A stretch of 38,171 nt of DNA from assembly GCF_000174415.1 (NCBI RefSeq), contig NZ_ACJM01000021.1:1-38171 (forward strand). The letters are read 5' to 3'. The notes under the pieces are model-generated. The model had not been told where the DNA came from, made no database searches, and saw nothing but the letters and a program-made list of their open reading frames with translations. The stretch is from Dethiobacter alkaliphilus AHT 1. Its GTDB lineage: Bacteria; Bacillota; Dethiobacteria; Dethiobacterales; Dethiobacteraceae. Below, one piece after another: positions 15,332 to 38,171 of the stretch (positions are counted from its first letter, which is position 1; each line of letters begins with the position of its first letter). The translations under genes were made by a program, and so were the position numbers.

Positions 15332-15790
15332 ATGAAAAGAGTTATATTATTACTCTGCTTAGCTATTCTTGCAGTAGGGGCCGGCTGCAGCACGGAAGGT
15401 TCACCAAGCTATACTGTAAACTCCTATGACGAATTTATTGAAGTGTTACAGGCCAGGGGATATGAAATTACTGAAATAGATGAGGAGAAAGAGGAAATTA
15501 CTAAATCCACGTTCTTTTCTGAATACCCCAAATCTATACAAATCAATTCCGAGGAACACTGGGTACAGGTATACGAGTTTTCAGACAGAGAAACCGCAAA
15601 AGCCGAAGCTGAAACCATTTCAGAAGATGGGTTAAGAATTGGCAATGTTTTAATCGATTGGTCAACGAAAATATATTTTTATCAGAAAAACAAACTTATC
15701 GTCTACCATGGCATTAGTGACCAAAAACTGTTAGCCGATTTTGAAAGCATTCTGGGCAAACCCATTCGGCAAACCCCTGAGATAAATTGA
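15332..15790 (+). CDS. Small lipoprotein, unknown function
   Basis: 152 residues. A type II signal peptide is clear: 'MKRVILLLCLAILAVGAGC', with lipobox 'VGAGC' and the acylated Cys at residue 19. The mature part is acidic ('EIDEEKEEI') and ends 'FESILGKPIRQTPEIN'. No domain is recognised. ATG has GAGGAGG nine bases upstream. A stretch of this gene (15405-15430) recurs exactly at 24026-24051, followed by a degraded continuation, so there was once another copy downstream of the cobalamin operon. A terminator shared with the converging lipoprotein gene follows. Confidence 0.7.
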   Translation: MKRVILLLCLAILAVGAGCSTEGSPSYTVNSYDEFIEVLQARGYEITEIDEEKEEITKSTFFSEYPKSIQINSEEHWVQVYEFSDRETAKAEAETISEDGLRIGNVLIDWSTKIYFYQKNKLIVYHGISDQKLLADFESILGKPIRQTPEIN

Positions 15791-15854: not shown

Positions 15855-16784
15855 TTATTGTAATTCCAACTCCATAAATTCAAACAGTTCAACCAAAGGC
15901 ACCGCGTTGTCTTTAACTTTATCCGGAACCGTAATACTATCAAAGGTATTAAAATCCTTAAAAGCCATTAATGCTGTTTGTGTAGTTTTTATTGTCTCAC
16001 CCTCTATGTTAATCACAATACTGAAAGACATTTCTGCTTTTGTTGTGTAATACGATTCCATATCAATCCAGATTTTGTACCTGATATCAGCAAAGGTAGC
16101 CATATCAAATAATTCCTCAAACGCAGCTTCTATATCAAACTCAGCTAAACTATCGGCCAGTTCATCTTTTATATATTCGTCTATTATTCTCTGCATTACC
16201 TCACCTTCTGCATCCTCTAGCGTAATAAGGTAATACTTGTTGTCCACAGTTTTTAAAGAAGCTGCAGCTGCCCCGTCATCTCCCAGCATAGTCAAGAGCT
16301 GCATGGGATCAGTATCATCCATACTAAACTCCATTAGGTCTTCCAATTCTAACCCATAATCACCTAAATCCTGACTCATCCAAATGCCTGACATGGAGTC
16401 ATAAATATACATTTGATTCTCCACCATATACATCTGCATTTCAAGATCCCCAAACTCAGCAGCCTCGGGGAAATTGACAAGGAAAGGCATGTGCATAGAT
16501 AATGTCATTTCCATTGCCACAGGATCCATTACTGCACGCCCTGTCCCCCTGGTCTGAATCTCAAGTTTATCAGGCATATCAGGTTCCTGAACCGATTCCG
16601 GCATCTCCATTACCTGAAACATCTCGATATCAAACTCATAAGAGTTAACCTCACTCATTGCCTCTATAGATTTTGCATATATTTCTGCAGCCTTCAGAGC
16701 CTCTTCTGTGCCAGAGCACCCTGCTATTAACCCCATTAATAATACCAATACGATAGGCAGCCCTAAGCGACTTTTTCCCAACAT
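15855..16784 (-). CDS. Lipoprotein, DUF6612-like
   Basis: 309 residues. The signal peptide 'LGLPIVLVLLMGLIAGC' has an acylated Cys near residue 23. The mature protein is very acidic and Met-rich, with repeated 'Y..EFDIEM', 'LSMHMPFLVNFPE' and 'MYMVENQMYIYDSMSGIWMSQD' strands. These suggest the LolA/LppX-like beta sheet of DUF6612-type lipoproteins that Firmicutes keep on the outer face of the membrane. 'FADIRYKIWIDMESYYTTKAEMSF' is the usual C-terminal strand pair. Function unknown. ATG has GGGAGGGG upstream. The gene stands alone. Confidence 0.72.
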   Translation of the reverse strand: MLGKSRLGLPIVLVLLMGLIAGCSGTEEALKAAEIYAKSIEAMSEVNSYEFDIEMFQVMEMPESVQEPDMPDKLEIQTRGTGRAVMDPVAMEMTLSMHMPFLVNFPEAAEFGDLEMQMYMVENQMYIYDSMSGIWMSQDLGDYGLELEDLMEFSMDDTDPMQLLTMLGDDGAAAASLKTVDNKYYLITLEDAEGEVMQRIIDEYIKDELADSLAEFDIEAAFEELFDMATFADIRYKIWIDMESYYTTKAEMSFSIVINIEGETIKTTQTALMAFKDFNTFDSITVPDKVKDNAVPLVELFEFMELELQ

Positions 16785-16890
16785 AAATACCCCTCCCTAT
16801 TTCTTTGACGAAATATCATATTTACTGTCATCATTGTAATTCTTTTCCATCGATAAAGAAATAGGCTTAAAGTCCTGTTTTTAGTACCCT

Positions 16891-16923
16891 GGGGGTCAGG
16901 TTTAATATTATTAATCATTTGCA
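16891..16923 (+). repeat. Dispersed repeat, copy D
   Basis: The family core GGGGGTCAGGTTTAA followed by TATTATTAATCATTTGC. It forms the left end of the 161-bp composite described next. Confidence 0.85.
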
Positions 16924-17055
16924 CTGTAAGCTTCATCTACTTCTTGTTGTTTTTGGGATTTTACATACCTGCTGGCCGCAGTTCAACTATGATCGTGCTC
17001 TTCTTATATGCCCTTGGCAGTACAACTGGCACACCACAGGTCCGAGGGTCAACTT
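16895..17055 (+). repeat. Composite scar: joined ends of the 30.85-32.23 kb module
   Basis: 16895-16978 matches 30849-30932 at 80 of 84 positions. The latter is the repeat plus the 3' end of the zinc-ribbon membrane protein gene. 16983-17055 matches 32157-32229 at 67 of 73 positions: an rRNA-operon-like terminator plus a 23S rRNA fragment. In the second locus these two parts are 1.2 kb apart with the gene between them. So this is a copy of that module with the gene deleted. Confidence 0.88.
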
Positions 17056-18037: not shown

Positions 18038-18081
18038 ATGCCCACTCACCTTCACCTTTCACCCGAAGGAGGTAAATACTC

Positions 18082-18236
18082 ACCTAGGCAGGTCTCCTGG
18101 CTTACATGTCATCATCTGCCCCAACCTTCCCAACCTGAAACCAGTCAGTGGTATAATAGGGGCAAACTCTCTGCTTACAGTGGCGGGACCGCGCCGGATT
18201 CTCACCGACTTCCCTTTTAAGTCAATACACCTATGT
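18082..18236 (-). ncRNA. Cobalamin riboswitch aptamer
   Basis: Read on the minus strand, the conserved B12-box elements are present in order: AGGTG near the 5' end, AAAAGGGAAGTCGGTG, then GAATCCGGCGCGGTCCCGCC and ACTGTAAGC, and finally AAGCCAGGAGACCTGCC. Two terminators follow before the 17.1-kb gene, so it most likely acts by transcription attenuation. Confidence 0.93.
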
Positions 18237-18267
18237 GCACAGTATGCAGTTGTTTTATACTGTAAAT

Positions 18268-18322: not shown

Positions 18323-19529
18323 GCTTCATTGTAAAATGAGATGCACCAGTGGTAACATTGCAAAATAAAAATGCGCCACAGCCCAATACCGTGTATGATT
18401 GATGTACGACCAACAATCAAAATACGGAGGTTTGGACTATGGCACACTCACAGCATACCACAATCCCACGGGAATTCAAACACTTGACATTGGATCAAAG
18501 AGGCATGATCGCTGCTTACCACGAATCAGGGCTCTCTACTAGGCAGATTGGAGCGAAGATAGGCTGTGACCACACAACAGTGTCCAGGGAGCTAAAGCGT
18601 GGCACAGTGCTACAGAGAAACAGTAATCTTACAGAGCGTTATGAGTACTTTCCTGATGCAGGGCAAAGGGTGTATCGTGAAAACCGCTCACACTGTGGTG
18701 CCAGATTCAAATTAGCTGATGTCAGTGCTTTTATGGATCACGCCCAAAGGATGATGCGCGATAAAGAGTGGTCACCTGACGCCATTGTGGGCGAATACAA
18801 GATAAACCCGAAGACCGCTGGCTTACCCTGTATCTGCACAAAGACCCTCTACAGCTACATAGATAAGGGCTTCATGGATACCAGAAACATTGACCTATTG
18901 CTAAAGGTCGGCCGCAAGGTTCGGAAGAAACGCAGCCGAATAAATAAGCGCAATCTTGGCGAATCGATAGAGAACAGGCCCCCAGAAGTCGCCACCAGAG
19001 AAACCTTTAGCCACTGGGAGATCGACACTGTGATCGGCAAGCAGTCAGAGGGCCAATCGCTTCTGACACTCCTTGAGCGAAAGAGCCGGGTCTTTCTTAT
19101 ACGACGACTCGAAGAGCACACTGTAGAATGTGTAAACGAGGCTCTAGTGGCTCTACAGAGAGATTACGGGGATGATTTCGCCCAGGTATTCCAGACGATT
19201 ACAGCAGATAACGGCAGTGAGTTCTCTGGTCTGTCAGACCAGCTCAGTAGCCTCGGTAGTAAAGCGTACTTTTGCCATCCGTACAGCTCCTGGGAAAAGG
19301 GTGCCAATGAAAAGCACAACAGCTTAATACGAAGGTTCCTTCCCAAAGGAACGTCATTTGCGGATCTCACACCCGAGTCCGTCGCCCGTATACAGAATTG
19401 GTGTAACAATCTTCCTCGGAAGATTCTTGGGTATCTTACACCATTACAAGCTTTCCACGCCGAAAGACTTGCTGCTGCTTGACTTCTCACCGGCACGGTG
19501 GGGTGGTGCATTCGCTATTGCAATTGAGG
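18323..19529 (+). mobile_element. IS30-family insertion sequence
   Basis: 1207 bp holding one transposase gene. The ends are imperfect inverted repeats: the left 25 bases (18323-18347) and the reversed right 25 bases (19505-19529) agree at 16 positions, with ATGCACC identical at the inner side. 13-bp direct repeats flank it. The element sits between the two divergent cobalamin riboswitches. Confidence 0.85.
18439..19482 (+). CDS. IS30-family transposase
   Basis: 347 residues, apparently intact. An N-terminal helix-turn-helix ('LDQRGMIAAYHESGLSTRQIGAKIGCDHTTVSREL', about 17-52) binds the element ends. The DDE catalytic core has 'HWEIDTVIG' (first Asp), 'TADNGSEF' (second Asp) and 'EKGANEKHNSLIRRFLPKG' (Glu region), with the 'W.K..NE..N...R.F.PKG' pattern that identifies the IS30 family. 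The end 'RKILGYLTPLQAF' is also typical. ATG has GGAGG eight bases upstream. No frameshift or internal stop is seen, so the element may still move. Confidence 0.96.
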   Translation: MAHSQHTTIPREFKHLTLDQRGMIAAYHESGLSTRQIGAKIGCDHTTVSRELKRGTVLQRNSNLTERYEYFPDAGQRVYRENRSHCGARFKLADVSAFMDHAQRMMRDKEWSPDAIVGEYKINPKTAGLPCICTKTLYSYIDKGFMDTRNIDLLLKVGRKVRKKRSRINKRNLGESIENRPPEVATRETFSHWEIDTVIGKQSEGQSLLTLLERKSRVFLIRRLEEHTVECVNEALVALQRDYGDDFAQVFQTITADNGSEFSGLSDQLSSLGSKAYFCHPYSSWEKGANEKHNSLIRRFLPKGTSFADLTPESVARIQNWCNNLPRKILGYLTPLQAFHAERLAAA

Positions 19530-19542: not shown

Positions 19543-19616
19543 TATATTCTTCGAAAATTGTACATTGTTTTTTTATGGGATTTATGATAGTATTTCATAA
19601 ACTTAATAAAAGCTAT

Positions 19617-19775
19617 AGACAGGTGCTCGTTACGAGAGTAAAAGGGAACCGGGTGCAAATCCCGGACGGTCGCGCCACTGTAACCGGCGAGATTTTCCAT
19701 AGAACCACTGAAGCTTCAGCTTTGGGAAGGTATGGCAAATCGTTTGAGTCGGAAGTCAGGAAACCTGCCTGTTTA
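19617..19775 (+). ncRNA. Cobalamin riboswitch aptamer
   Basis: The plus-strand element has ACAGGTGC at the start, then AAAAGGGAACCGGGTGCAAA followed by TCCCGGACGGTCGCGCC and ACTGTAACC, and the closing GGAAGTCAGGAAACCTGCC. It controls the btu operon and is the mirror-oriented counterpart of the riboswitch on the other side of the IS30 element. Confidence 0.96.
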
Positions 19776-19832
19776 TGCAAAAGAACATCTTTCGCGCCAA
19801 AGGATGGGTTGCTTTCTTTAATGTCTGCTTGT

Positions 19833-24018: not shown

Positions 24019-24025
24019 CCTCCAA

Positions 24026-24070
24026 CAAGCTATACTGTAAACTCCTATGACATGAAGCGGTACAGGCCAT
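24026..24070 (+). pseudogene. Fragment of a second copy of the 15.3-kb lipoprotein gene
   Basis: 24026-24051 is identical over 26 bases to 15405-15430 of the lipoprotein gene, reading Ser-Tyr-Thr-Val-Asn-Ser-Tyr-Asp. The next part then resembles 15439-15454 (TGAAG then TACAGGCCA) after a short deletion. No open frame continues. It lies between the btu operon and the toxin-antitoxin pair. Confidence 0.75.
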
Positions 24071-24110
24071 AGGAGTTCAAATAACTATTTATATTTGTAG
24101 GCTTATAAGT

Positions 24111-30745: not shown

Positions 30746-30844
30746 ATCGCTACCCCCATTATATGTAATTCAAGAGTAATTCTGTTTCTGCTGGCATTTT
30801 CCTTTTTTAACGATATGAGATTGTTAATTTCTCTGCAACACATC

Positions 30845-30877
30845 GGGTGTCAGATTTAATATTCTTAAACATTTGCA
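30845..30877 (+). repeat. Dispersed repeat, copy E (degenerate), ending the zinc-ribbon membrane gene
   Basis: Reads GGGTGTCAGATTTAATATTCTTAAACATTTGC, four changes from copy D within 33 bases. It supplies the end and the TAA stop (30865-30867) of the gene that follows. Confidence 0.75.
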
Positions 30878-31965
30878 CTGAAAGCTTCATCTACTTCTTG
30901 TTGTTTTTGGGATTTTACATACCTGCTGGCCGGTATCCTATACCCCTGATAAATGGCAATGCCCCAAAATACCAAGGTAATAGGATCAGTTTGAATGCCC
31001 ACTGTAATAAGCTGGACTACGGCTTCAACAGGAAGAAAAAGAGGAATACCAGTTATTCCTTCTGCTGCTAACTCCAAAACTGCAAAATGGCGAATAATCA
31101 AATATTCACTGAACATCATGGCAAACAGCGTAGCTACTGCGCTTATCCCCTGCACTACGGTACCCCGCTTTTTTCCGGCCCCGTAAATGGCAGTATTGGC
31201 AACAATCCAGCCAATAAGAACAGCAATAACACCTGCCTGCATGTTTGTGATTATAACAAAGCCATACCATAGCAGAGAACAGATGACTGCAGCACCTAAA
31301 GAAAAAAGAATTGACTTAGCTGCATTTACGCCCTCTGTTTCCTGTTGCAGTTCTTCTTCATGAGCTGTAAAACAATCGGGACAGAGAAATTTATCTATAT
31401 CTTTATTGTTTTTTGCCGGGAAGTGTGCGGTCTCCAAAATGCTTGTTACCTTATCACAGTTCGTACAGACTATCATGCCTTTAGAATTTGATTTCTCCAT
31501 AGCAAACGCGGGGTATTCTTCAGGCAATATCTGATGTTTACCGTCCTTTAAAACCAGGTTCTCCGTTAGGTCATTTTTAAACATCATGAGCATGGCAGGA
31601 ATGTGATTACCGGAGTGTACGTAATACTTCTCTGCTTTGCCGGACTGCAATAAAATCTCGAGTTTACCTGTAAAAGGAGAGTTCTGAGGCTGGAAGCGTT
31701 TCTGGTACAGTACTTCTTTAATTTCTTCAGCATCAATTATAAAGTTATGCTTGTCCATTGAGAGAAAATCATTATCATCACCTTGAAACCCTTCATACTT
31801 TTCCATCAACTTACCGCTGACATTATACATTTGGCCACCAATCTTAGCCCCGTATAATTTCGCTTGATGAATAAAAGACAGATAGACAATATCCAATGAA
31901 AAGGTATTGTTTTTAACTAAGATAAAATAATTACCGACAGCTCTACCGTCAATAGTAAGATCCAA
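30865..31965 (-). CDS. Membrane protein with central zinc ribbon, unknown function
   Basis: 366 residues. The first ~160 residues are soluble. A zinc ribbon follows: 'CTNCDKV' and 'CPDCF' about 30 residues apart (residues ~168-203). Four hydrophobic helices come next (about 222-240, 245-265, 272-295, 310-340). The last residues and stop come from dispersed repeat E. I do not recognise the family. Start is TTG 31965, with AGGAGGGG nine bases upstream. The gene and its flanks, 30849-32229, form a module of which a gene-less remnant lies at 16895-17055. Confidence 0.65.
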   Translation of the reverse strand: MDLTIDGRAVGNYFILVKNNTFSLDIVYLSFIHQAKLYGAKIGGQMYNVSGKLMEKYEGFQGDDNDFLSMDKHNFIIDAEEIKEVLYQKRFQPQNSPFTGKLEILLQSGKAEKYYVHSGNHIPAMLMMFKNDLTENLVLKDGKHQILPEEYPAFAMEKSNSKGMIVCTNCDKVTSILETAHFPAKNNKDIDKFLCPDCFTAHEEELQQETEGVNAAKSILFSLGAAVICSLLWYGFVIITNMQAGVIAVLIGWIVANTAIYGAGKKRGTVVQGISAVATLFAMMFSEYLIIRHFAVLELAAEGITGIPLFLPVEAVVQLITVGIQTDPITLVFWGIAIYQGYRIPASRYVKSQKQQEVDEAFSANV

Positions 31966-32269
31966 TAGAAGTCCCCTCCTGTCCTTCCCAATTGTAAATT
32001 CATTTACCTTACTGGAATAATTTTAAGCGTTTTCCACATAATTAAAAATAGGCCTTTAGTCCTTGCTTCAATTATGCAAAGTTTGATTTAGTATACCTGG
32101 CAGCATCCGCCAGGTGCAGAATGAAATCATAGGCGAGCCCAAAAAAAGAGCACTGATCAACTATGATCGTGCTCTTCTTAAGTGCCCTTGGCAGGACAAC
32201 TAGCACACCAGAGGTCCAAGGGTCAACTTCACAAACCAGAAACTAAAGCTGTTGCAGCAACGTGGTATG
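31966..32269. other. Spacer between the zinc-ribbon gene and ftsW-like gene, with rRNA-derived block
   Basis: 304 bases without a gene. 32141-32177 is a hairpin nearly identical to the rRNA-operon terminator at 34048-34087. 32182-32216 is 33 of 35 identical to 23S rRNA (34453-34487). The rest shows nothing more than the leader and promoter region of the zinc-ribbon gene. Confidence 0.8.
32141..32229 (+). repeat. rRNA-derived block: rrn-terminator copy plus 23S fragment
   Basis: Left part: AAGAGCACtGATCA/TGATC-GTGCTCTT hairpin as in the rrn terminator. Right part: 35 nt matching 23S rRNA next to the sarcin-ricin loop, with two mismatches (33 of 35). A second, more diverged copy is at 16983-17055. 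Confidence 0.85.
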
Positions 32270-33997: not shown

Positions 33998-34047
33998 CAC
34001 TAAAAAACCCGCTCTAAACCATGAATGGGTAACTGTGCGAGCGCATG

Positions 34048-34087
34048 AAAAAAGAGCACTGATCAATTAATGATCGTGCTCTTTTTT
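34048..34087 (-). terminator. rRNA operon terminator
   Basis: AAAAAAGAGCACtGATCA / TGATC-GTGCTCTTTTTT with a short loop, immediately downstream of 5S rRNA on the minus strand. Nearly identical copies are in the composite repeats at 32141-32177 and 16983-17007. Confidence 0.92.

Positions 34088-34265: not shown

Positions 34266-38171
<3,906 letters not shown>

What the first reader, a model, noticed from the sequence alone, without database searches (positions are those of the whole stretch)
16895..17055. A gene-less scar built of both ends of the 30.85-32.23 kb module
16895-16978 equals 30849-30932 (80/84), and 16983-17055 equals 32157-32229 (67/73). At the second locus the two blocks lie 1.2 kb apart, on either side of the zinc-ribbon membrane gene. 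At the first locus they are joined directly. So either the whole module was copied and then its gene was lost by precise deletion, or the ends are what moves. The module has no recognisable transposase, so the mobility or copying mechanism is unexplained.
Basis: seen in the sequence. Interest (0 to 1): 0.72.

Follow-up and report, generated by a model that had tools for sequence, protein, structure and literature searches.

The report
Relic of a duplicated, deleted gene
The spot is a leftover of a second copy of a nearby membrane-protein gene: only the gene's tail with an attached short repeat, and a scrap of ribosomal-RNA-operon DNA that lay upstream of it, survive; this is an ordinary kind of genome debris, although one of its edges coincides with a known type of mobile repeat.

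Summary
The two matches are real (83/88 and 67/73; BLAST E 7e-36 and 1e-26), but the blocks are not anonymous module ends. Block 1 is the last 22 codons and stop of the zinc-ribbon gene (30865-31965, minus strand) running into a REP-like repeat with 24 copies in the genome; copies flank a REP-associated-transposase-like gene on another contig. Block 2 is rRNA-operon debris: a 36-bp piece of 23S rRNA joined to an rrn-type terminator. At 30.85-32.23 kb these lie downstream and upstream of the intact gene. At 16.9 kb they are joined, with about 1.2 kb lost between the terminator palindrome and codon 344. Best reading: a second copy of REP-gene-rRNA debris lost its body by illegitimate deletion and decayed. 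The junction occurs once in this genome and in none of 59 relatives, no third copy exists, and other REPs carry no adjacent duplicated gene pieces, so a recurrent cassette is not supported. The shared block stops at the REP's outer edge, so REP involvement in the copying stays open. The scar adjoins the only other gene in the genome with a similar leader, hinting that 16.9 kb was the gene's older home (inference).

The parts
16886..16922 (+). REP-like repeat (consensus CCTGGGGGTCAGGTTTAATNTTNTTAATCATTTG), outer edge of the shared block
   Evidence: 24 copies in the genome with up to 3 mismatches, 20 exact to the pattern, against 1+1 for the reversed control pattern; copy alignment
16914..16982 (-). 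last 22 codons and stop of a lost second copy of the zinc-ribbon membrane gene; the stop codon lies inside the REP
   Evidence: protein search, 16917-16982, 86% identity to residues 344-365
16979..16982 (.). 4 extra bases (CAGT) at the deletion junction
   Evidence: junction comparison
16983..17055 (-). rRNA-operon debris: 23S fragment (17007-17042) joined to a half terminator palindrome (16983-17006)
   Evidence: 23S fragment 34/36 identical at the other copy, terminator arm matches rrn tails
16811..16876 (-). leader of the DUF6612 gene (15855-16784), similar to the leader of the zinc-ribbon gene
   Evidence: score 47 against shuffle mean 24.2, sd 3.2, max 38; leader alignment
30840..30876 (+). 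degenerate REP-like repeat overlapping the stop codon of the intact gene
   Evidence: matrix score 31 against 54-58 for the other window copies, next best -0.2
30865..31965 (-). intact zinc-ribbon membrane gene, 366 aa, TTG start with AGGAGGGG upstream
   Evidence: no Pfam or NCBIfam match; no homologue in 97 other genomes of the class
31996..32063 (-). leader of the zinc-ribbon gene with the near-palindrome AGGACTAAAGGCCTATTT
   Evidence: motif found with 0-1 mismatch only at 32046 and 16859 in the whole genome
32143..32229 (-). rRNA-operon debris with an intact terminator: 23S fragment 32181-32216 (34/36 to 34452-34487) joined to a terminator like the rrn one
   Evidence: 50 bp, 88% to 34037-34086; z = -4.05; hairpin with T run

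Best explanation
The 16.9-kb block is a gene relic. A segment made of REP-like repeat, zinc-ribbon gene and upstream rRNA-operon debris existed in two copies in the same orientation about 14 kb apart. In the 16.9-kb copy an illegitimate deletion of about 1.2 kb, with one endpoint inside the terminator palindrome and the other 22 codons before the stop, removed the promoter and nearly the whole gene; the remainder has drifted to about 7% divergence. Shown: homology, composition of each block, absence of the gene body at 16.9 kb, absence of a third copy. Inferred: that a complete second gene copy once existed there, the order of events, and that the deletion was unassisted. More tentatively, 16.9 kb is the older home, since it adjoins the only other gene in the genome with a similar leader, and the 30.85-kb copy is the survivor.
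For: Block 1 is coding tail plus REP, with the same REP-gene junction in both copies. Block 2 shares a derived rRNA deletion joint and one derived base (T to C on the + strand, against the 23S gene), so both copies descend from one piece of debris. Divergence of the two blocks is alike: 5/88 and 6/73. The intact copy folds a full terminator (z = -4.05); the relic lost one arm (z = 0.18). Only these two copies exist. A second gene-fragment relic lies in the same window (15402-15472 vs 24023-24086), so such debris is not unique here.
Against: No genome with an intact gene at the 16.9-kb site or with an empty site is available: no congener is held and the gene has no homologue in the class. Homology stops at the REP's outer edge, which a random duplication breakpoint would seldom hit. 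The REP part is somewhat more diverged than the coding tail (4/32 vs 1/56, Fisher p = 0.057).
Confidence: 0.66

Rival explanations
1. REP-driven copying: a RAYT-type transposase, or recombination between REP copies, started the copying at the REP edge and carried the neighbouring gene DNA along (one-ended), with the gene body lost during or after the event.
For: The shared block ends at the REP's outer edge. REP copies in inverted orientation flank a Y1-transposase gene of 313 aa on C8 (REP_Tyr_transpos E 1.6e-12). Published cases in which the 3' end of a rayt gene was taken into REP arrays (PMC2817692), and REP clusters as recombination hot spots (PMC11708052).
Against: Only this pair among 24 REPs carries an adjacent duplicated gene piece. 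There is no REP at the other border (matrix scores -11 and -22). The transposase match is below NCBI's curated cut-off (47.5 vs 80 bits).
Confidence: 0.17
2. Two independent events: the 23S-terminator debris and the leader at 16.8 kb are one duplicated upstream region, into which a REP carrying the 3' end of the zinc-ribbon gene was inserted.
For: In the scar the order debris - tail+REP - leader parallels debris - spacer - leader at the second locus.
Against: The debris is 92% identical but the leaders only about 68%, so they do not look like one duplication; the debris and tail blocks have similar divergence.
Confidence: 0.1
3. A mobile or cassette-like unit with defined ends, of which the gene is cargo.
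For: Two loci share both ends.
Against: Only two copies in 3.1 Mb, none in 59 other genomes, an exact 23-mer of the block is absent from genome contigs, no inverted or matching ends, and one end is rRNA debris.
Confidence: 0.04
4. Assembly artefact of a draft genome.
For: Draft in 34 contigs with rRNA at contig ends.
Against: The scar is in mid-contig and differs from the other copy at 11 positions, so it is not a collapsed or chimeric duplicate.
Confidence: 0.03

Closest known systems
Gene relics (pseudogene remnants) left after duplication and deletion in bacterial genomes
   Same: Only terminal fragments of a paralogue remain, noncoding and drifting, next to other genes
   Different: Nothing essential; the piece kept happens to be bounded by a REP and by rRNA debris
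REP sequences and REP-associated tyrosine transposases (RAYTs; Nunvar et al. 2010, PMC2817692)
   Same: Short dispersed repeat, mostly between genes or at gene ends; copies in inverted orientation flank a Y1-transposase gene
   Different: Only about 24 copies, a weak predicted hairpin, no GTAG tag; the transposase scores below NCBI's RAYT cut-off
Duplications joined at REP sequences (Shyamala, Schneider and Ames 1990, seen here only as a citation in PMC11708052)
   Same: A REP at the border of duplicated DNA
   Different: Here a dispersed copy 14 kb away with a REP at one border only; no REP-REP hybrid join point is shown

Membership tests
Gene relic of a duplicated gene | Homology to part of an intact gene in the same genome, without an intact frame or start | tested here: met
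   22 of 366 residues kept at 16917-16982
Gene relic of a duplicated gene | An ancestor or relative with the intact second copy | tested here: inconclusive
   No genus-mate held; gene absent from the class sample
REP/RAYT system | Dispersed short repeat in many copies | tested here: met
   24 copies; copy number is low against the more than 100 per genome usual for REPs (PMC2817692)
REP/RAYT system | Y1-transposase gene flanked by two of these repeats in inverted orientation | tested here: met
   C8:101835 (+), gene at L082:1423-2364, C8:102859 and 102901 (-)
REP/RAYT system | Transposase above the curated RAYT cut-off | tested here: not met
   NF047646 47.5 bits against a cut-off of 80; hence REP-like and RAYT-like only
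REP/RAYT system | Palindrome with a GTAG-type tag | tested here: not met
   Fold of 16884-16925 not better than shuffles; no GTAG in the consensus
Transposon or cassette with gene cargo | Same ends at several unrelated sites | tested here: not met
   Two loci only, one without gene

The most novel reading that the evidence does not exclude
A RAYT-type transposase acting at a single REP can copy a neighbouring non-transposase gene to a new site, so that the gene changes its home and leaves a REP-bounded footprint.
Probability: 0.1. Interest if true: 0.5.

Novelty: new member of a known kind. Interest (0 to 1): 0.2.

Why it matters
Mostly as a clean example of how a bacterial gene is copied and one copy erased, leaving its tail and its upstream debris. 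If the REP edge is not a coincidence, it would be a case for REPs as copying borders for ordinary genes.

Tried and rejected
Riboswitch or RNA family at block 2: no Rfam hit there; it is 23S rRNA plus terminator. Second REP at the right border (GGGTCAACTT resembles REP): matrix scores -11 and -22, rejected. REP-borne pieces as a general pattern: all-against-all of 24 REP flanks gave only this pair, rrn tails and REP doublets. Homologues of the gene: none in the class, genome contigs, viral contigs or plasmids. Neighbour synteny: the 17067-17861 gene has no relative in the family and the FtsW-like gene only paralogue-level ones, so an empty or filled site could not be found. One large segmental duplication covering both relics of the window (15.3-17.0 to 24.0-32.2 kb, same order and orientation) was considered; the divergences differ (about 24% and 7%), so it is left open.

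Full report
Observation. The two matches are present at the coordinates given. BLAST extends the first to 16891-16978 = 30845-30932 (83/88, E 7e-36) and gives 16983-17055 = 32157-32229 (67/73, E 1e-26). Chance is excluded.

What block 1 is. On the minus strand it is the last 22 codons and the stop of the zinc-ribbon gene (30865-31965), running into a repeat of about 33 bp. The protein search finds exactly this stretch (16917-16982, 86% identity to residues 344-365) and no other relative in the genome. The repeat occurs 24 times in the 3.1-Mb genome (20 exact to GGTCAGGTTTAAYNTTNTTAAT, reversed control 1+1). Three copies surround a Y1-transposase gene on contig C8, in inverted orientation, and that protein matches NCBI's REP-associated tyrosine transposase model at E 1.6e-12, below the curated cut-off. 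So the repeat is REP-like. The copy at 16.9 kb is near consensus; the one at 30.85 kb is degenerate (matrix scores 58 and 31). The REP-to-gene junction (CATTTGCACTG) is the same in both copies, so the repeat most likely was there before the duplication.

What block 2 is. It is rRNA-operon debris. 32181-32216 equals 34452-34487 inside the 23S gene (34/36). The adjoining 32133-32179 equals the rrn terminator region 34037-34086 (88%), and the rrn tail on C30 is as close (90% over 50 bp). The 23S 3' end and the 5S gene are missing between the two pieces. Both loci share this derived joint and one derived base, and each has private changes (scar 4, the other 1, against the 23S gene), so the debris was duplicated after it had formed. 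At 32.2 kb the terminator is intact (fold z = -4.05); at 16.9 kb one arm is gone (z = 0.18).

The junction. Left parent CTGCTGGCCG|GTATCC, right parent GAGCACTGA|TCAACTATGATCG, scar CTGCTGGCCG-CAGT-TCAACTATGATCG. One endpoint is within the terminator palindrome, the other 22 codons before the stop; 1224 bp of the reference arrangement are missing and 4 bases are extra. Palindromes are well-known deletion hot spots (general knowledge, not tested here). This looks like illegitimate deletion, not precise excision of the gene.

A neighbour that matters. The DUF6612 gene beside the scar (15855-16784, Pfam E 1.7e-30) has a leader resembling that of the zinc-ribbon gene, from a near-palindrome AGGACTWWARGCCTATTT towards the ribosome-binding site (score 47, shuffles mean 24.2, max 38 of 1000). 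The near-palindrome occurs with at most one mismatch only at these two places in the genome. A relic of one gene lying next to the only other gene with this leader suggests that the two were neighbours at 16.9 kb and that the 30.85-kb copy is the relocated survivor. This is inference; rRNA debris 2 kb from an rRNA operon argues the other way.

Mobility. The junction occurs once, there is no third copy, and 59 other genomes of the family and class show at most 23S hits. The gene has no homologue in 97 other genomes of the class, none in genome contigs, viral contigs or plasmids, and an exact 23-mer of the tail is absent from genome contigs (own-genome records may be left out there). All-against-all comparison of 24 REP surroundings shows adjacent duplicated gene DNA only here. 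A cassette is therefore not supported. What remains is that shared sequence stops at the outer edge of the REP at both loci. Nunvar et al. report 3' ends of rayt genes taken into REP arrays (PMC2817692), and REP clusters are described as recombination hot spots (PMC11708052), so a role of the REP in the copying is possible, at about 0.17.

Source. Genome size and contig number (3,112,004 bases, 34 contigs) resemble the published draft of Dethiobacter alkaliphilus AHT1 (34 contigs, 3,116,746 bp; PMC5609068). This is a guess from those numbers only.

Verdict. A gene relic of an ordinary kind, with an interesting REP border; interest 0.2.

Noticed in passing
15402-15472 and 24023-24086: A second gene-fragment relic: part of the lipoprotein-like gene 15332-15790 (26 bp exact, 76% over 71 bp) lies between genes at 24.0 kb, in the same order and orientation as the 16.9/30.85-kb pair.
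   Followed up: partly
16811-16876 and 31996-32063: Two genes (DUF6612 and zinc-ribbon) share a leader with the near-palindrome AGGACTWWARGCCTATTT that occurs nowhere else in the genome; perhaps a two-gene regulon.
   Followed up: partly
6444, 10707, 11705, 16894, 30848: 5 of the genome's 24 REP-like repeats lie in this 38-kb contig (about 0.3 expected from its length).
   Followed up: partly
18070-18249 (-) and 19604-19786 (+): Two cobalamin riboswitches in opposite orientation flank an IS30-family transposase gene (18439-19482).
   Followed up: no
L080 (C30) 459-541 and L079 (C28) 695-848: REP-like repeats sit directly behind rRNA-operon terminators on two other contigs; the window's rrn tail is the same as the C30 one up to CAGT but has no repeat there.
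   Followed up: partly
30865-31965: The zinc-ribbon membrane protein (366 aa) has no match in Pfam or NCBIfam and no homologue in the class sample: an orphan gene.
   Followed up: partly
L081 (C31) 770-869: About 100 extra bases, with an inverted repeat, between 23S and 5S in one rRNA operon compared with the others.
   Followed up: no
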